Shown here: one piece after another, positions 5,077 through 20,382 of the stretch
Layout of the letters: each line of letters opens with the position of its first letter
Numbering within the stretch: the stretch's first letter is position 1
Source of the DNA: Gemmatimonadota bacterium
Lineage (GTDB): Bacteria; 4572-55; J002
Assembly: GCA_003697105.1 (NCBI GenBank)
Contig: RFFQ01000147.1
Location: forward strand, 1 to 20,421
Reading direction: 5' to 3'
DNA: 20,421 bases
Position numbers and translations under genes: made by a program
The notes under the pieces: generated by a model
Seen by the model: the letters and a program-made list of their open reading frames with translations, nothing else
Databases searched by the model: none
What the model was told of the DNA's origin: nothing

Positions 5077-6168
5077 TTATCGTCCGGTGAAGGAATCCAC
5101 GGGACGGTCCCGGTAATCCAACAGCATGTTGCCCACATGTTGTGAATCTTGTTCGATGTAGCGTTTCATCAGGTTTTCCTTCCAGAGAACCTGCTTGTGT
5201 GTTTCGGAATCAAACCCTTTCAATGCCGCTTCGTAGTGCCCGTGCGGGATGCCGTGATACTTTCCTCCGGAAATCTGGGCGATTTTAATCCCCAACTGCG
5301 TACCCCACCACAACTCACCGCCTTTATGTTCGCTAAATCGCCCATGTGCCGGATTGATCACAATAATGGGGATTTTGTTTTTGCGGAACAATTTTGCCTG
5401 CTGGATCGCCTTCTGATAAGCGGGTTCCTCAAATAAATTTTTGTATGTTGCGGTGAGCGGCTCCGGGTGACAATCACTGAGGAGAATCGCCACCGGATTG
5501 TAAAACGGTTGGCGTTGTCGCACCTGTTTGAAGACCTCCAACGCTTTTTCCAATGCCTCTGCTAAAGGGGTATTTCCAGAGGGTGAGAGACGGGTTAAAT
5601 TACCTAAAACCCTCTTTAAATTGCGAGAAGGATGGTTGATCACATGGACGCTATTTTTTTGGATGGCAATGAGTCCCAGTGTATCCCGGTTCCGGTAGGC
5701 GTCGCGGTATAAAATGGAGATGATCCGTGCTGCCGGTTCCAGAAAATGATAGGTGGAGGCGCTCACATCTGCAATTAGGAGCATGGTTAGCGGAGCTTTG
5801 CCCAAACGTACCCACATTTGAAGATCGGAACGGATCAATTTAAGTGGCATCTGTCCCTGCTGGCGGATGAGTGCTGTGCGAACCGTCGGTAATACTGCAA
5901 AATTCTGGGCGGAAACGACCGTTGCCGGACGAAACCGGATCGGGCGACCCCGGCTCTCGCTGGTAAAGGTGGCGGCTCGTTTGCCCACTTTCGGTTGGGT
6001 GTGGGGCTTGTGAGAAGACGTTAATTTTAATTTCCAATCATCAAATGCGCCTTTTAGCGCCTTGAAAATTTCCTGCGGTGAGATGAGTGGTACACTGAGT
6101 TCACGCTGTTTTTGCCGGCCAGATGCCGCGCGTGAATCCGAAAGCTTAAAATCCGGGGATGGTTCTAC
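5077..6168 (-). CDS. chlD: ChlD-type VWA half of a chelatase medium subunit, read by -1 frameshift from the upstream AAA+ frame
   Basis: The C-terminal integrin-I/VWA half of a Mg/Co-chelatase medium subunit. The basic segment GKRAATF..SRGRPIRF is typical of the ChlD region before the VWA domain. A MIDAS metal site is visible: DVSAS, then Thr in SGNTPL, then Asp in LLSDCHPEP. The frame is open from 6300 down to 5077 but contains no ATG, GTG or TTG until a GTG at 5988, which has no SD and would discard the linker. I therefore read it as continuing from the ChlI-like frame by slippage at 6168-6174, giving 363 residues after the shift and a total of 748. If instead GTG 5988 is used, the product is a 303-aa VWA protein. 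The domain call is firm; the mode of expression is inferred. Confidence 0.8.
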   Translation of the reverse strand, partial: VEPSPDFKLSDSRAASGRQKQRELSVPLISPQEIFKALKGAFDDWKLKLTSSHKPHTQPKVGKRAATFTSESRGRPIRFRPATVVSAQNFAVLPTVRTALIRQQGQMPLKLIRSDLQMWVRLGKAPLTMLLIADVSASTYHFLEPAARIISILYRDAYRNRDTLGLIAIQKNSVHVINHPSRNLKRVLGNLTRLSPSGNTPLAEALEKALEVFKQVRQRQPFYNPVAILLSDCHPEPLTATYKNLFEEPAYQKAIQQAKLFRKNKIPIIVINPAHGRFSEHKGGELWWGTQLGIKIAQISGGKYHGIPHGHYEAALKGFDSETHKQVLWKENLMKRYIEQDSQHVGNMLLDYRDRPVDSFTGR

Positions 6169-6178
6169 TTTTTTTTTT
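6165..6178 (-). promoter_or_regulatory. Programmed -1 frameshift site: A AAA AAG slippery heptamer before UAG
   Basis: On the minus strand an A10 run (6178-6169) is followed by G (6168) and the zero-frame stop TAG (6167-6165). In the zero frame the last codons are GAA AAA AAA AAG TAG, so A_AAA_AAG (6174-6168), the same heptamer as in E. coli dnaX, lies exactly in phase before the stop. A -1 slip continues as GTA GAA CCA in the open VWA frame. A GGTGG stretch (6185-6181) could be a weak internal SD-like stimulator. I see no strong downstream hairpin; the best is a weak 5-bp stem CCGGA/TTCGG. The A10 run could also cause transcriptional slippage. Confidence 0.75.
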
Positions 6179-7322
6179 CGCCACCGGCAGTTGGTGACGC
6201 AAGATGATGTTTTGTTCCGGTTTTGCCGGTAGTTTGGTACGGTGGCAATGAGAACCGCTCCCCTTGTTTTTTGTGGGGAGCATGTTTCGCCAGTGCATTT
6301 TCAAGGGTCTTTTTAATCTCGGTGGGGGTTGCCGGGGCGTCAAAGCCACCATCACGGGTGCGATGCCCCAGAGCGAATTGGCAGGCAGTGAGCAGATCGG
6401 ATTCCGTAACAAGGGGGTGGTCGTGATATGCGGCAAGGGTCAATGCCGTGCGGGTGATGATGATTTCCGGACGGTGTCCATCCACTTTAAGTTGAATGCA
6501 CGTTGTGGCAATGGCTCGCAATTGATACTCTTCAATTTCACATTGGTGTAAGCAATGTTGTGCCTGAAGAATCCGGTCTCCTAATGCCTTTTCTTCGGCG
6601 TGGTAGTGATCGTGTAATTGCTGGGGATTCTGCCCCGAAATCAGATTGCGCCGGATGATTTCCACCCGAGCAGACTCATCGGTAAGGGTTTTGAGGGTGA
6701 CGGAAAGGGGTAGCCGGTCTAGCAACTGGGGACGGAGTTCACCTTCTTCCGGATTCATGGTGCCCACTAAAATGAATCGGGCGGGATGGCTGATCGAAAA
6801 TCCTTCCCGTTCAACGGTATTCCATCCCAAAGAGGCGGCGTCGAGAATATCGTCCGTGATATGGTCAGGTAACAGATTGATCTCATCAACGTATAAAAAA
6901 TTGTGATTTGCTGTTGCCAATAAGCCGGGTTGGAATGCTTTTTGACCTTCGGAGAGCATTTTTTCCATATCTATCGCACCGATCAGGCGGTCTTCACTGA
7001 TACTGAGGGGTAGCGGGATAACTTGCATTTTACGCGAGACGGTGGGTAATGGCTCGCCGGCAGATAGACGAGCTTGGCAATCCGCACACAAATATTCTTC
7101 TTGCGTTGCTAAACAGTTGTAGCGGCAACCGGAAACAATTTCCCGTTCGGGGAGAAGATGCGCAAGGGCATAAACTGCCGTACTTTTGCCGGTACCTTTG
7201 GGACCCCGAACCAGTAGCCCGCCAATCCGAGGGTTGATTGTGTTCAGAATGAGTGCCAGTTTAAGTTCATCCTGTCCGACAATCGCTGAAAATGGGATGG
7301 TATATTGTCTGCGGTATGCCAT
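6165..7322 (-). CDS. ChlI/ChlD-type AAA+ chelatase ATPase (zero-frame product)
   Basis: A 385-residue AAA+ protein of the MoxR/ChlI class. These ATPases power insertion of Mg or Co into a tetrapyrrole by the large ChlH/CobN subunit. Visible are the IVGQDELK start of the AAA+ core, Walker A GPKGTGKS (40-47), Walker B FLYVDEINLL (142-151), and the sensor/Arg segment GTMNPEEGELRPQLLDR (187-203). Four cysteines (66, 70, 79, 82) may bind a metal. The tail after residue 330 is the Lys/Pro-rich linker found in ChlD proteins. I place the start at ATG 7322, not the in-frame TTG at 7391, because that TTG is part of the -35 box. Alone, the product resembles the small subunit ChlI; read through the slippery site it is the N-terminal half of ChlD. 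No separate chlI or cobN lies in the window. Confidence 0.88.
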   Translation of the reverse strand: MAYRRQYTIPFSAIVGQDELKLALILNTINPRIGGLLVRGPKGTGKSTAVYALAHLLPEREIVSGCRYNCLATQEEYLCADCQARLSAGEPLPTVSRKMQVIPLPLSISEDRLIGAIDMEKMLSEGQKAFQPGLLATANHNFLYVDEINLLPDHITDDILDAASLGWNTVEREGFSISHPARFILVGTMNPEEGELRPQLLDRLPLSVTLKTLTDESARVEIIRRNLISGQNPQQLHDHYHAEEKALGDRILQAQHCLHQCEIEEYQLRAIATTCIQLKVDGHRPEIIITRTALTLAAYHDHPLVTESDLLTACQFALGHRTRDGGFDAPATPTEIKKTLENALAKHAPHKKQGERFSLPPYQTTGKTGTKHHLASPTAGGEKKK

Positions 7323-7362: not shown

Positions 7363-7391
7363 AGTGTACCGGATATGGGTAAAACTGTCAA
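7363..7391 (-). promoter_or_regulatory. Promoter of the chelatase gene
   Basis: On the minus strand a perfect -35 TTGACA (7391-7386) and a -10 TACACT (7368-7363, 4/6) are 17 bases apart. Transcription would start near 7356, about 34 bases before the ATG at 7322. This placement rules out the upstream in-frame TTG as a start codon. Confidence 0.7.
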
Positions 7392-8113: not shown

Positions 8114-11100
8114 ATGCACATCACACCTTATAAATCCAAACATCAAATTCGATTTGTCACGGCGGCGGCATTATTTGATGGGCATGATGCCAGTATCAAT
8201 ATTATGCGCCGAATTTTACAATCATCTGGAGCCGAAGTCATCCATTTAGGACATAATCAAGCCGCAGAAGTGGTGGTGGATGCCGCTATTCAGGAGGATG
8301 CGCAAGGGATTGCCGTTTCATCCTATCAAGGCGGGCACATGGAATTTTTTAAGTACATGTACGATCTGCTGCAAAAAAAAGGGGCGGGTCACATCCGTAT
8401 TTACGGCGGCGGTGGCGGGGTGATCGTCCCCCGCGAGATTAAAGAACTACATGCGTACGGCATTGCTCGTATTTTTTCTCCTGAAGATGGGCGACGCATG
8501 GGCTTACAAGGTATGATCAATCTGATGCTAGAAGAATGTGATTGGGTGATGAATCCGTGGGGGGATAAAAACCTACCGGGTTTAGAAAATGGGCAGAAAG
8601 CCGGCATATTAGCACAAGAACTCAAACAGCTCAATCCCACGGATGTGGTCAAAATTGCTCAATTTATCACCTTTGCTGAAAATGATACCGAAGAGACCTT
8701 TCATCGAGCATTGGGCTTGATCAACGGTGAGATGAAGACGATACCCGTGCTCGGGATTACCGGTACCGGGGGTGCCGGAAAGTCCAGTTTAACCGATGAG
8801 TTAGTCCGCCGATTTCTCAATGATTTTGAAGATAAAACGGTTGCGGTATTGTCCGTAGATCCCTCCAAACGGAAGACGGGGGGTGCGCTCTTGGGTGATC
8901 GCATCCGTATGAACGCGATTCGCAATCCGCGCTGTTACATGCGTAGCCTTGCTACTCGCGATTCTAAGTCGGAACTCAGTCACGCCATTCGGGAAGCCAT
9001 CGCGGTGACCAAAATGGCAGGATTTGATCTGATCATTGTCGAAACGAGCGGTATCGGGCAGGGAGATGCGGAAATCATCGATATTGCGGATATTTCGGTT
9101 TATGCTATGACCCCTGAGTACGGCGCGGCGTCCCAACTGGAAAAGATCGACATGATCGATTTTGCCGATTTTATCGCCCTCAACAAATTTGACCGCCGCG
9201 GTGCCGAAGATGCCTTGCGCGATGTGCGGAAACAGTACCAACGCAGCCGGCAATTGTTTGATAAAAATGTGGAGGAGATGCCGGTCTATGGCACAATTTC
9301 GAGCCATTTTAATGACCCCGGGGTCAATCAATTGTATCTCCGGTTGATCGATCACCTCAATGGAAAATTTGACCTTCAGTGGCAGAGCCAGATCACGCCG
9401 GAAATGTGCCGCCGCACGGAAAAAGACGTGATTATCCCCCCAGACCGTACCCGCTACCTCTCCGAAATTGCCCATACCGTGCGAAATTACAAAAAATGGG
9501 CACAGGCTCAAGCTGAAATTGCCTCAGGTCTGTACCAATTGTATGGCGCGTTGGTGATGTTAGGTGATGAACCGCCCTGCCGTCTCGGTTCGTATCCAAA
9601 AGATGCCACCAGCGATGACCCGGTGATTCAGGCATTACGGGACAAATGGCAGGAAAATTTGGATCAATTGGATAAACATTGCCACAAATTATTAGCCGGA
9701 TTACCCGAATTTTACCAACAGTATCAAGGTGATGAATTTGTGTATCAAGTACGGGGTAAAGAATTTCGGGTAGCGCTGGTGACAGAATCGCTCTCGCATC
9801 TAAAAATCCCCAAAGTTTGTTTACCCCAGTACCGGGATTGGGGCGATGTTCTAGCATGGCGGTTGTTGGAAAATGTGCCGGGAGAATTTCCGTACACGGC
9901 GGGTGTGTTTCCCTTAAAGCGAACCGGAGAAGACCCGACCCGCATGTTTGCCGGTGAAGGTCCACCAGAACGTACCAACAAACGGTTTCACTACGTCAGT
10001 CGCGATTATACCGCTAAACGACTCTCCACCGCATTTGATTCCGTCACACTCTACGGTGAAGACCCGCACGAACGCCCCGATATTTACGGTAAGATTGGCG
10101 AAGGGGGGGTTTCCATCGCCACATTAGACGATATGAAAAAATTATATGCCGGATTTGATCTCGTCTCGCCGCATAATTCTGTCTCAATGACGATCAACGG
10201 TCCCGCTCCCACGATCCTCGCCTTTTTTATGAACACGGCAATTGACCAGTTGTGTACAAAATGGTTGGTCGATAATGCCAAATTACCGGCAGATGCTCTC
10301 TGGTTGGAATCCTCCATTAATGTCGATACCGGTGAGCCGTTCCGGGTACTGGCGGATGCGTGGAAGTATGTGCCGGATGAGGTCTATCAGGAGTTGAAAG
10401 CATGTGCCTTGCAAAATGTCCGGGGTACGGTGCAAGCGGATATTTTGAAGGAAGACCAAGCGCAAAATACCTGCATTTTTTCGACAGAATTTGCCTTAAA
10501 GGCGATGGGGGATGTGCAACAGTATTTTATCGATCAAAAAGTGCGGAACTTTTACAGCGTGAGTATTTCCGGGTATCATATTGCAGAGGCAGGCGCCAAC
10601 CCGATCTCGCAGTTGGCATTTACGCTTGCAAATGGCTTCACCTACGTGGAGTATTACCTCTCCCGCGGGATGGATATTGATGATTTTGCCCCGAATTTGT
10701 CCTACTTTTTTAGTAATGGACTTGACCCCGAATATTCTGTGATTGGACGGGTTGCCCGGCGCATTTGGGCGACTGCCATCAAGAACAAATACGGGGGGAA
10801 TGAACGCAGTCAAAAGTTGAAATATCACATCCAAACCTCCGGACGCAGTCTCCACGCGATGGAGATCGATTTTAATGATATTCGCACAACGTTACAAGCA
10901 TTGATCGCGATCTATGACAATTGTAACTCGCTCCATACCAACGCTTATGATGAGGCAATTACTACTCCAACGGAAGAGTCGGTGCGGCGTGCATTGGCAA
11001 TTCAGATGATCATTAATCGGGAGTTTGGCTTAGCCAAAAATGAAAACCCCAATCAGGGGGCATTTATCATTGAAGAATTGACCGAACTCGTGGAAGAGGC

Positions 11101-11527
11101 GGTTTTAAGTGAGTTTGAACGCATCTCGGACCGGGGAGGTGTCCTTGGTGCCATGGAAACCCAATATCAACGGGGTAAAATTCAGGAAGAATCGCTTTAT
11201 TATGAACATCTTAAACACAGTGGAGCATTACCGATTGTCGGTGTCAATATGTTTTTGAACCCAACAGCGGATGATGTGGAAAAGGCAGATTCCATCGCAC
11301 TTGCCCGTTCCTCCCAAGCAGAAAAGGATGCTCAAATCCGTAACTTGCGGGCATTTCAGGAACGGCACAAACAAGAAGCCCCTGCCGCTCTCCGGCGATT
11401 ACAACAAGTGGCTCTCTCTCATGGCAATATTTTTGAAGAACTGATGGAGACCGTTAAATACGCCAGTTTGGGACAGATAACCCACGCCCTGTATCAGGTC
11501 GGCGGTGAATATCGCCGGAATATGTAA
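8114..11527 (+). CDS. icmF: Fused isobutyryl-CoA mutase (IcmF), adenosylcobalamin-dependent
   Basis: A 1137-residue three-part fusion that interconverts isobutyryl-CoA and n-butyryl-CoA, or related short branched acyl-CoAs. The N-terminal B12-binding domain has FDGHDAS (21-27), with His24 as the predicted cobalt ligand, and the glycine-rich GGGGGVIVP (98-106). A MeaB-type G-protein chaperone domain follows, with Walker [10 protein letters not shown] (217-225), ETSGIGQGD near 310-318, and NKFD near 355. The mutase barrel begins around residue 560. AGVFP (596-600) puts Phe599 where methylmalonyl-CoA mutase has Tyr, and AQNTCIF puts Gln784 where it has Arg. These two changes mark IcmF rather than methylmalonyl-CoA mutase. 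His822 in [11 protein letters not shown] is the usual active-site histidine. SD AGGAG (8101-8105) lies eight bases before the ATG. The exact substrate is not decided by sequence alone. Confidence 0.95.
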
Positions 11528-16600: not shown

Positions 16601-16638
16601 CGGGGCACTTCTTGCCGAAACCTCAATTCATACACAAA

Positions 16639-19600
16639 ATGATGATGATCGACTATCGATACCAGATTATAAAACCGCTCGGGCGTGGCGGGATGGGCAG
16701 TGTCTATTTAGCAGAGGATCACCTCCTACATCGCCGGGTCGCGCTGAAGATGCTTCACTCTAAGTATTTGCGTACCAATGAGGTCGATCAATTTCGGAGT
16801 GAATTTCAGGTGATGACACGCCTCAAGCATCCCAATTTAGCCCGGGTCTATGACTTTGGCTATGATGAGGTGGGGCACGAATATTTTCTGACGATGGAAT
16901 ATTGCCCGGGTCAGACCCTCAAAAACCACTTTACCGCTCCGGGCACCATCACATCTCAAACCATTCTTGATATTTTTGTACCGCTTCTCCGAGCGATTGA
17001 ATTTATCCACAGCCGGAATATCCTTCACCGCGATCTAAAACCCTCCAATATCATGATCCATCAGGGACATATCAAAGTGATGGATTTTGGGCTATCGGAG
17101 TTGAGATCAGCGGAAAAACATACCAGTCGAGGTACGTTGATGTACTTGGCACCGGAAATTGTGCATAGTAAACCCGCGGATGCCTCCGCCGATATTTTTG
17201 CTCTGGGTCTGACCCTATTTGAGCTCCTGACCGGAGAAACCTTCTACCACCGCTATGCCATACATGACCGCGACACCGGTCTTCCGATGCCCATGTGGAT
17301 GGCATTACCCTTACTTGCCGACGCCGAAAAATTCACCGCCTACCAAAACCAGACCTTACAACTGGTCGAATCCCAAATCTGGCGAGATATTCTCCGCCGG
17401 ATGACCGCTTACCATCCAACAGATCGATATTCCCAGTGTACAGACATCTTGATGGACTTAAACCAGACCTTACAGTTAAACATTGAACTGGAGACGAAAA
17501 CTACCCGTGAAGCCTACGTTCTGGGAGCAGAGTTTATCGGGCGAGAAAGGGAATTTCAGCAGGTGGTTGGATGGCTCGACCATCCCGACAGTGGGAAAAA
17601 AGCGTTGCTCGTCCACGGTGACGCCGGAATTGGTAAAAGCCGGCTATTTGAAGAATTCCGCTATCACTGCCAGCTTCAAAATCTGATTTTTATGCAAAGT
17701 GATAGCGTGGAGCAGGGACAGCACAACTTCGGAGCATTTTTGCCGTTGATTAGTGAGGTGCTTCTCCAAGCGACACCTTCCCAAATTGAGAAATACGGTG
17801 CCGATCTCAAAAAAATTCTCCCCCTACATCGCCAACTGAAACATATCAGAGTCAGCCCCTCCAGCGATCCGCAGACGGAGCGCCAGATTTTGATCTACGT
17901 GATCGTGGACGTGTTGTTGGATTATGCCCGGCACCAAAACCGCCGCATCATTCTCTATCTGAATGACGGTCAGTGGTTTGATGAGACGAGCTTGCAAACG
18001 TTACAGGAACTTCTTTGCCAGCTCGAGTCGGTGGAGGAAGACCTACCCCTGCGGGTATATGTAAGCAGTCGTGAAAGTGGTATGGCGTTGTTTACTCCCC
18101 TAATAAAAAAGGGGCAAATGCAGGATTTGGCATTGAGTTCCTTCACACCGGAGCATGTACAGCGCTACTTGGCGGCGATTTTTGGTAAAGGGAATATCGC
18201 TAAACATCTGAAGGACGCCATCCCAGACATTCAAAACCGGGTGGGGGGAAATCCCTTTTTCTTGCAAGAGCTGATCAAATCGTTGGTTGAGCGGGAGTTC
18301 ATCTGCCGCACAACCCGGCAGTGGGAATTGGTTCAGCCCATCGATCAAGTAGAAGTACCTGCGAAGCTAACCGACCTGTTGGCAAGCCGGTTGCACCATC
18401 TGAATCTACCCCCCCATCAAAATGATGCGTTACACATATTAAGTGTGTTGCACCATGCCCCGGATTTGATGGAATTCCAAACGCTGGTAGCCGTCTCCCC
18501 AGCAGACCTTTTCCAATTAGAACGATTGGAATTGGTGCGCCTCGAAAAAACGGAAGACAGCATCCGGTATCATCTTGCCCATGATCTAATTCGAGAGACA
18601 ATTACAGCCCAGATTGAAGACGTGACGGCATTACATCTCCATGTGGCAACCTGTCTCGAAACCTTTCACCACGATAATTTAGCACCATTTTATGCTGAAT
18701 TGGCGCATCATTATGTTCAGGCGGAAGCGCGAGAAAAAGCCATTGAATACCTAGAAAAAGCCGGGGATCAGGCAAAAGCAAACTACCAGAACAAAGAAGC
18801 GCTTCAATTTTATGATCAATTGCTCCAGTTCTACAAATCAGCCCCCAATGATGAAAACCACGCCATTGAAGTCATGCTCCGTAAAGGCAATATTTTAAAT
18901 CTGATTGGCGAATGGGACACCGCAGAAGCCATTTATCGAGAGGGTATTACCCGTTCGGGACGTATCGGAGCAGAACGCCTGAAGAGCAATTTTTTGGGAG
19001 CGTTGGGAGCACTGTTAAAGAATCGCAGCCAATTTGAAGAAGCGTTGGAATGCCACCGTCAGGCGTTAACCATCCGCGAACAGCTCCATGATACGCCGGC
19101 AATGGCGCGTTCGATGCTGGAAATCATCACAATCTATCAGGCTCAAGCCAACTACGAGGAAGCACTTCGTCTTGCCGAAAAACAGCAACGCTTGAGTCAG
19201 GAAGCCAACGACCGTATTGCTTGTTTCAAAGTGTTAAAGGTTCTTGGAATCATCCATTACAGTATCGGCAACTATAGCCAAGCACTGGACTTTTTCCAGC
19301 AACAGCTCGCCATGATGCAACAATATGAATCCATGTTAGCAACCCCGAACCATTATGCAAACGTCTATGGACATCTAGGAGCCTGTTACGTTGAACTGGA
19401 TCAGCTCGAAGAAGCATTAAAATACGTTACGTTGGAACTTCGATATTTTGAAAAAATGAATGACCGGTTAGGGATTTCCTATGCGTTAGAAACCCTTGCC
19501 ATGATCCACCACCGCCAAGGACATTTGGCAGAGGCGCTTCGCATCTACCGCGACCAACGTCAAGTGAGCATAGAACTGGGGGATGTTGAGGGCAACCTGA

Positions 19601-20382
19601 TTGCGGAACTGAATATCGGCTCCTTACTCTATGAACAAGGGGCGTATGAAGCGAGTTTAACGCATTCGTTTAAAGCACTGGAGTTGGCGGAACAGATCCA
19701 TCACCGCCGGGTACTGCCCACCATTAATGGAAATATCGGTGAAATCTATCGCTTAATGGGGAAAATTGATTCCGCCAAACATTACATCGAGCGCCAAATT
19801 CAATGGGAACGAGAATTGGGGCAAAAAACCGGACTTTCCATCGGATTGGATAATCGGGCAAAGATATATTATCAGGATGGACAATATGAGCGTGCTCTAG
19901 ATGATTTTACGAAAGCTATTGACCTTGGACGGGAAACCCAGATACCCTATTACTTGTGCAGTTACCTTATTCATAAAGCCACCGTGCTTTATCACCTAAA
20001 AAATTACCCCCAAGCGACGGTCCTGAACCAAGAAGGGCTCCAACTCGCTGAGAGGGTCAAACGCACCGAGTACAGCTTCAAAGGCAAACGGCTCCAATTA
20101 AAAATTGATTATGCCTGCCAAAAACTCACCAAAGAGGACGTAATTACTTACTACCAACTGATGCGGAAAGAATACCCGCAGCCACAGGAACAAGCGGATA
20201 TCTACTATGAGTTGTATTGCCTTACCCAAGAGCCAACCTACGCCATTACCGCCCTTAATTTGTATCAAGACCTTTACCAGCAGACCCCCAAAATTGCTTA
20301 CCAGCAACGTGCCGAAAACCTTCGCACAGCGCTTGCCGCTCCTTCCGAAAATATAATTGACAATCCTCTTGAATTCTACTAA
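16639..20382 (+). CDS. Serine/threonine protein kinase fused to a STAND-type ATPase and TPR repeats
   Basis: A multidomain cytoplasmic signalling protein of 1247 residues from ATG 16639, or 1256 from TTG 16612; residue numbers here use the longer form. The Hanks-type kinase (about 16-285) has GRGGMGSV (24-31), Lys46, HRDLKPSN (139-146), DFG (158-160) and APE (180-182), all intact. An AAA_16/STAND ATPase follows, opening with FIGRERE near 306 and carrying Walker A GDAGIGKS (336-343) and the Walker B-like ILYLNDGQWFD near 445. From about 700 to 1170, helical TPR-like repeats recur with Ala, Tyr and Gly at the usual spacing. No membrane segment or DNA-binding domain is visible. TTG 16612 would lie only about five bases from the predicted transcript start, so I prefer ATG 16639, although neither has a clear SD. 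The partner and trigger are unknown. Confidence 0.9.
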   Translation: MMMIDYRYQIIKPLGRGGMGSVYLAEDHLLHRRVALKMLHSKYLRTNEVDQFRSEFQVMTRLKHPNLARVYDFGYDEVGHEYFLTMEYCPGQTLKNHFTAPGTITSQTILDIFVPLLRAIEFIHSRNILHRDLKPSNIMIHQGHIKVMDFGLSELRSAEKHTSRGTLMYLAPEIVHSKPADASADIFALGLTLFELLTGETFYHRYAIHDRDTGLPMPMWMALPLLADAEKFTAYQNQTLQLVESQIWRDILRRMTAYHPTDRYSQCTDILMDLNQTLQLNIELETKTTREAYVLGAEFIGREREFQQVVGWLDHPDSGKKALLVHGDAGIGKSRLFEEFRYHCQLQNLIFMQSDSVEQGQHNFGAFLPLISEVLLQATPSQIEKYGADLKKILPLHRQLKHIRVSPSSDPQTERQILIYVIVDVLLDYARHQNRRIILYLNDGQWFDETSLQTLQELLCQLESVEEDLPLRVYVSSRESGMALFTPLIKKGQMQDLALSSFTPEHVQRYLAAIFGKGNIAKHLKDAIPDIQNRVGGNPFFLQELIKSLVEREFICRTTRQWELVQPIDQVEVPAKLTDLLASRLHHLNLPPHQNDALHILSVLHHAPDLMEFQTLVAVSPADLFQLERLELVRLEKTEDSIRYHLAHDLIRETITAQIEDVTALHLHVATCLETFHHDNLAPFYAELAHHYVQAEAREKAIEYLEKAGDQAKANYQNKEALQFYDQLLQFYKSAPNDENHAIEVMLRKGNILNLIGEWDTAEAIYREGITRSGRIGAERLKSNFLGALGALLKNRSQFEEALECHRQALTIREQLHDTPAMARSMLEIITIYQAQANYEEALRLAEKQQRLSQEANDRIACFKVLKVLGIIHYSIGNYSQALDFFQQQLAMMQQYESMLATPNHYANVYGHLGACYVELDQLEEALKYVTLELRYFEKMNDRLGISYALETLAMIHHRQGHLAEALRIYRDQRQVSIELGDVEGNLIAELNIGSLLYEQGAYEASLTHSFKALELAEQIHHRRVLPTINGNIGEIYRLMGKIDSAKHYIERQIQWERELGQKTGLSIGLDNRAKIYYQDGQYERALDDFTKAIDLGRETQIPYYLCSYLIHKATVLYHLKNYPQATVLNQEGLQLAERVKRTEYSFKGKRLQLKIDYACQKLTKEDVITYYQLMRKEYPQPQEQADIYYELYCLTQEPTYAITALNLYQDLYQQTPKIAYQQRAENLRTALAAPSENIIDNPLEFY

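What the first reader, a model, noticed from the sequence alone, without database searches (positions are those of the whole stretch)
5077..7322. One chelatase gene with a -1 frameshift signal that should yield both ChlI-like and ChlD-like subunits
Seen directly: the AAA+ frame ends GAA AAA AAA AAG TAG, placing A_AAA_AAG in phase immediately before the stop. The -1 frame is open across the junction and encodes a ChlD linker and a VWA domain with an intact MIDAS site. That frame has no ATG, GTG or TTG between the junction and position 5988, and the GTG there has no SD. Known: A_AAA_AAG is the dnaX-type -1 slippery site, and programmed frameshifting that makes small and medium chelatase subunits from one chlD gene has been reported for cobalamin producers. 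Inference: this gene makes a 385-aa ATPase and a 748-aa ATPase-VWA protein, which would partner a CobN elsewhere. The A10 run would also allow polymerase slippage, so the mechanism is open.
Basis: partly seen in the sequence, partly recalled or inferred. Interest (0 to 1): 0.85.

Follow-up and report, generated by a model that had tools for sequence, protein, structure and literature searches.

The report
One frameshifting gene, two chelatase-like subunits
A single bacterial gene appears to make two proteins, a motor alone and a motor joined to a metal-binding domain, by slipping one reading frame at a run of ten A's; the arrangement is kept across many uncultured bacterial groups that lack the chelatase partner it would be expected to serve.

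Summary
On the minus strand a 385-aa ChlI-type AAA+ ORF ends GAA AAA AAA AAG TAG, and the -1 frame continues, with no usable start codon, into a 363-aa linker and VWA domain with an intact MIDAS. In two of them the frames overlap by only 7 and 10 nt, essentially the run itself. One sublineage has fused the frames, so the split is probably ancestral.

The inferred CobN partner fails: CobN/ChlH was found in 0 of 11 carriers searched and CbiC in 0 of 11, against CobN in 5 of 7 genomes with ordinary ChlI/ChlD. This is an "orphan" fs-chlD, a category already reported (PMC9227772); frameshifting at long A-runs in chlD is also known (PMC3711429).

Best reading: conserved recoding sets the ratio of AAA+ motor to AAA+-VWA adaptor in a MoxR/NorQD-like remodelling or metal-insertion machine. 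Ribosomal versus RNA-polymerase slippage is unresolved for the window (A10, no SD, no structure); one A7 sublineage carries ribosomal stimulators.

The parts
6165..7322 (-). 0-frame ORF: ChlI-type AAA+ ATPase, 385 aa (P0001), stop TAG at 6167-6165
   Evidence: TIGR02442 E 7e-127 and TIGR02030 E 7e-113; ChlI structures 6l8d E 5e-96 and 1g8p E 1e-81
7179..7205 (-). Walker A GPKGTGKST (P0001 residues 40-48)
   Evidence: Sequence
6169..6178 (-). A10 slippage run; heptamer A_AAA_AAG in phase at 6174-6168
   Evidence: conserved as A7-A10 at the junction in all split-frame relatives; one of two A10 runs in the genome
5077..6168 (-). -1 frame: linker plus VWA domain, 363 aa (P0002), stop at 5079-5077; frame open upstream to 6300
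   Evidence: TIGR02442 VWA part E 5e-29; Pfam VWA_2; BchD VWA 2x31 by profile
5755..5769 (-). MIDAS DVSAS (P0002 D134, S136, S138); with T200 at 5569-5571 and D232 at 5473-5475
   Evidence: D134, S136, S138 and D232 are invariant in the 10-sequence alignment
5986..5988 (-). First possible start codon (GTG) in the -1 frame after the junction; no SD upstream
   Evidence: homologues align upstream of it
7363..7391 (-). Weak promoter-like match TTGACA-17-TACACT upstream of the single start
   Evidence: Consensus match only; number of matches at chance level

Best explanation
This is an orphan frameshift-chlD gene. Reading in frame gives a 385-aa ChlI-like AAA+ ATPase that stops at TAG directly after an A10 run. 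A fraction of expression slips by -1 at the run and continues into the linker and VWA domain, giving a 748-aa AAA+-VWA protein. The slip is either the ribosome on A_AAA_AAG or RNA polymerase adding one A. Shown: the frame arrangement, its conservation and its wide spread. Inferred: the two products assemble with each other, and the MIDAS-bearing VWA is the adaptor that ties the AAA+ motor to a client, as in NorQ/NorD-type MoxR systems. The client is not CobN/ChlH and is not yet known; metal insertion into, or remodelling of, another enzyme is the likeliest role. By analogy with tested chlD cassettes (9 A 40%, 11 A 63% in E. coli, PMC3711429), a large share of product should be the long form.
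For: Same -1 frame relation and in-phase A-run in every split relative: 8, further ones. The overlap is only 7 nt in L053, 10 nt in L059 and 16 nt in L054, which confines the shift to the run. The -1 frame has no start for 179 nt after the stop in the window and none within 250 nt in L053. Homology in the -1 frame begins at P0002 residues 12-26 in L032, L034 and L036, well before residue 61 where GTG 5988 lies. The family is monophyletic (100/99), and its only in-frame fusions are nested inside it (98/92). Each of 11 carriers has a single ChlI-like copy. CobN/ChlH in 0 of 11 carriers and also not in G088, a distant single-ORF relative; CbiC in 0 of 11; against CobN in 5 of 7 genomes with ordinary ChlI/ChlD genes. 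MIDAS residues are invariant. Literature: PMC3711429, PMC9227772, NorQD PMC13036017.
Against: No expression or proteomic data. In the window there is no SD beyond a 4-nt match upstream of the slip site and no downstream structure beyond chance, so classical ribosomal stimulators are missing. The sister lineage with a single fused ORF and no separate small gene shows that an AAA-only product is not needed in every member. Genomic neighbours are not conserved, so the client is inferred only by analogy. The genome is 96.85% complete, so a missed CobN in this one genome is possible, though hardly in all carriers.
Confidence: 0.8

Rival explanations
1. The frame change happens in transcription: RNA polymerase slips on A10 and adds an A, so a share of mRNAs carry A11 and read straight through, as reported for dnaX of Thermus thermophilus (A9). 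This is a rival only on mechanism; the two products are the same.
For: All split relatives except one sublineage have A9-A10, longer than a heptamer needs, without consistent SD or structure. Nine A's is the length at which selection against polymerase slippage is evident in a large proportion of bacteria (PMC1088944). The A7 sublineage instead has a downstream hairpin (z -7.0, -4.4, -2.6) and, in two of three sequences, AGGAGG 10 nt upstream.
Against: Product yield in E. coli cassettes of other chlD genes rises with run length under the name of frameshifting (PMC3711429), and A_AAA_AAG is present in phase. No cDNA data.
Confidence: 0.4
2. The two frames are split by an assembly or sequencing error in the homopolymer; the real gene has A11 and is one ordinary ORF.
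For: A10 is error-prone, and the closest relatives by identity (G137, G274, L052) do have a single ORF.
Against: 16 relatives from different projects show the same -1 split with A7, A9 or A10; in the fused ones the A-run is absent altogether.
Confidence: 0.03
3. Two separate proteins: the VWA part starts at GTG 5988 or by reinitiation, with no fusion product.
For: One relative (L039/G031) has an overlapping ATGA with an SD 10 nt upstream of its A-run.
Against: In the window there is no start for 179 nt after the stop and no SD at the GTG, and homology extends upstream of the GTG. L053 has no start within 250 nt. The sister lineage is fused.
Confidence: 0.06
4. It is a true cobalt or magnesium chelatase motor that uses a CobN/ChlH not assembled in this genome.
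For: Closest named families are putative cobaltochelatase TIGR02442 and ChlI TIGR02030.
Against: CobN/ChlH absent from all 11 carriers searched; CbiC absent from the same 11. Scores are below those families' curated cut-offs, though the halves were scored apart.
Confidence: 0.05

Closest known systems
fs-chlD genes of Pseudomonas, Burkholderia, Delftia, Herpetosiphon, Methanocaldococcus and Methanococcus (Antonov 2013, PMC3711429; Antonov 2020)
   Same: One gene, -1 shift at an A-run, AAA+-only and AAA+-VWA products
   Different: In cobalamin producers the products are proposed to act with CobN; here CobN and CbiC are absent
'Stage 1' orphan fs-chlD (Spirochaeta thermophila, Brevefilum fermentans; Kuznetsov 2022, PMC9227772)
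   Same: fs-chlD without large subunit or B12/chlorophyll pathway, function unknown
   Different: Different taxa; whether they belong to the same monophyletic family was not tested (their sequences could not be fetched by name, and the motif scan did not list them)
MoxR AAA+/VWA pairs such as NorQ/NorD and RavA/ViaA
   Same: AAA+ ring working with a VWA adaptor on a client
   Different: Two separate genes, a different AAA+ subfamily, known clients
dnaX (ribosomal shift in E. coli, transcriptional slippage in T. thermophilus)
   Same: A-run frame change making two products of one gene, by either mechanism in different lineages
   Different: There the shift truncates the protein; here it extends it

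Membership tests
Frameshifted chlD (fs-chlD) | ChlI-like AAA+ ORF followed by a VWA ORF in the -1 frame | tested here: met
Frameshifted chlD (fs-chlD) | In-phase A_AAA_AAR-type slippery run at the junction, conserved in relatives | tested here: met
   A_AAA_AAG in the window; A_AAA_AA(A/G/C) in relatives
Frameshifted chlD (fs-chlD) | Both products made in vivo | not testable with these tools
   Needs expression data
Aerobic cobaltochelatase CobNST / Mg-chelatase ChlIDH | Large subunit CobN or ChlH in the genome | tested here: not met
   PF02514 absent from own genome and 10 other carriers; positive in 5 of 7 genomes with ordinary ChlI/ChlD
Aerobic cobaltochelatase CobNST / Mg-chelatase ChlIDH | Corrin or chlorophyll pathway present | tested here: not met
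   CbiC PF02570 absent in 11 of 11; this is the only corrin gene tested, and chlorophyll genes beyond ChlH were not tested
TIGR02442 putative cobaltochelatase | Whole-protein score over the curated cut-off (779 bits) | tested here: inconclusive
   The halves score 424.5 and 101.2 bits apart, together below the cut-off; the joined protein was not scored
dnaX/IS-type ribosomal -1 frameshift | Upstream SD and downstream stem-loop stimulators | tested here: not met
   Window: best SD match 4 nt, structure z about 0. Both present in relatives L065/L051 and L039
MoxR AAA+/VWA chaperone pairs (works like, not a member) | AAA+ ring physically working with a VWA partner on a protein client | not testable with these tools
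   Architecture and MIDAS fit; no interaction data

The most novel reading that the evidence does not exclude
A monophyletic non-chelatase family of AAA+/VWA machines in uncultured candidate phyla keeps an ancient single-gene two-product design, while the mechanism has changed between lineages: long A9-A10 runs (polymerase slippage) in most, a short A7 run with SD and hairpin (ribosomal frameshifting) in one, and outright fusion in another.
Probability: 0.35. Interest if true: 0.65.

Novelty: new member of a known kind. Interest (0 to 1): 0.45.

Why it matters
Orphan ChlI/ChlD machines have no known function (stated as open in PMC9227772). This family shows that the two-product design persists over long evolutionary distances without any chelatase large subunit, so the products should serve some other client. 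It also offers a natural series (A10, A9, A7 with stimulators, fused) in which the mechanism and the need for two products can be compared directly.

Tried and rejected
Homopolymer error: rejected by relatives. CobN partner: rejected by PF02514 searches with positive controls. Conserved gene neighbourhood as a clue to the client: none; only close relatives share neighbours. Downstream RNA structure in the window: tested at 15 offset and length settings, z between -1.3 and +1.2. A hidden slippery site in the fused relatives that could make a short form: only weak heptamers; L035 has one in-phase AAAAAAG with a 35-codon -1 extension, judged incidental because L032 lacks it. Fold search of the VWA model (pLDDT 73) gave only generic VWA-fold matches (Rpn10, BatB and others), no client clue. 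Antonov 2020 is not held. The phylum-wide search found only two held species in this phylum, the other without the gene, so no close relative of the window was available.

Full report
What is there. The gene lies on the minus strand, 7322 to 5077. The first ORF encodes a 385-aa ChlI-type AAA+ ATPase (ChlI structures match at E 5e-96 to 1e-81). It ends GAA AAA AAA AAG TAG, with an A10 run at 6169-6178. The -1 frame is open from 6300 to 5080 and, after the run, encodes a linker and a VWA domain with MIDAS residues D134, S136, S138 and D232 invariant in a 10-sequence alignment. The first possible start in that frame is GTG 5988, 179 nt after the 0-frame stop, with no SD. Homology to relatives extends upstream of it.

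Is the split real? A search of 386 diverse genomes with the VWA half gave 11 other genomes with a match, ten of them of this family, and a scan of GTDB genomes with the alignment of VWA halves gave 14 named loci, some of them the same genomes. Every split-frame locus has the VWA in the -1 frame and an in-phase A-run at the junction: A10 in the window, L041, L056, L060 and L064; A9 in L033/L055, L034/L054, L036, L040, L053, L059/L066, L061, L062 and L063; A7 in L037/L051/L065, L038 and L039. That makes 16 relatives besides the window. In L053 the frames overlap by 7 nt, in L059 by 10, in L054 by 16, so the shift can only occur in the run. In nine long A9/A10 loci, the window included, the junction is the only A or T run of nine or more. 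In this genome A10 occurs twice in 4.18 Mb, and the other copy is intergenic. A rough calculation that ignores shared descent puts coincidence far below any threshold. A sequencing error is excluded for practical purposes.

Evolution. A maximum-likelihood tree of the AAA+ core puts all carriers in one clade (100/99) apart from ordinary ChlI/ChlD. The window groups with a Latescibacterota sequence and the in-frame fusions L052 and G274 (86/83); the Latescibacterota sequence and the fusions group together (98/92). The fusions lack the A-run and genomes G137 and G274, which carry them, have no separate chlI. The simplest reading is an ancestral split gene with one later fusion. An ancestral fusion with several later splits is less economical but not formally excluded.

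Mechanism. The window has no SD match above 4 nt near the run and no downstream structure (z between -1.3 and +1.2). Most A9-A10 relatives are alike, although L055 (z -3.1) and L059 (z -2.7) have some structure. The A7 sublineage is different: a hairpin directly downstream (z -7.0, -4.4, -2.6), and AGGAGG 10 nt upstream in two of the three sequences analysed. Those are classical ribosomal stimulators. In published cassettes of other chlD genes expressed in E. coli, the yield was 63% for 11 A, 40% for 9 A and 10% for 7 A (PMC3711429). Nine A's is also the length at which selection against polymerase slippage is evident in a large proportion of bacteria (PMC1088944). So long runs fit either mechanism, and short runs with stimulators fit the ribosome. 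I put ribosomal and transcriptional slippage at about even odds for the window. If polymerase slips, adding one A gives the long form, while losing one leads to a nearby stop (SRTIPGF*).

Function. CobN/ChlH (PF02514) is absent from this genome and from 10 other carriers, as well as from G088, a distant single-ORF relative, while the same search rings in 5 of 7 genomes with ordinary ChlI/ChlD. CbiC is absent in 11 of 11. No conserved neighbour was found. The design is that of a MoxR-type AAA+ ring with a VWA adaptor, as in NorQ/NorD (PMC13036017), with the recoding ratio setting how many ring subunits carry the adaptor. That part is inference by analogy.

What is known. Frameshifting in chlD (PMC3711429; PMC5009743) and its occurrence in genomes without a large subunit (PMC9227772) are published, the latter with function unknown. 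The additions here are a monophyletic family across several candidate phyla, its consistent lack of CobN/ChlH, a derived fusion, and the contrast between long runs and short runs with stimulators.

Noticed in passing
window 8114-11527 (+): Large ORF resembling IcmF, the fused B12-dependent isobutyryl-CoA mutase, next to the gene (named from the translation, not scanned); the genome lacks CbiC, so B12 is presumably taken up.
   Followed up: partly
L039/G031 junction: AAAAAAATGA: A-run, stop and an overlapping ATG of the -1 frame with an SD 10 nt upstream of the run, so frameshifting and coupled reinitiation are both possible there.
   Followed up: partly
L059 and L066: The contig named 'Desulfuromonas sp. 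SDB' has the same junction sequence as genome G386, which sits in the same family as the A7 genomes G031, G178 and G313; the deposited genus name looks wrong.
   Followed up: partly
window 7077-7127 (-), P0001 residues 66-82: Four-cysteine motif CRYNC...CADC in the AAA+ domain, also present in relatives and in an ordinary homologue (L005); possible zinc site.
   Followed up: no
window 16612-20382 (+): Large ORF that looks like a Ser/Thr kinase with ATPase and TPR regions (named from the translation only).
   Followed up: no
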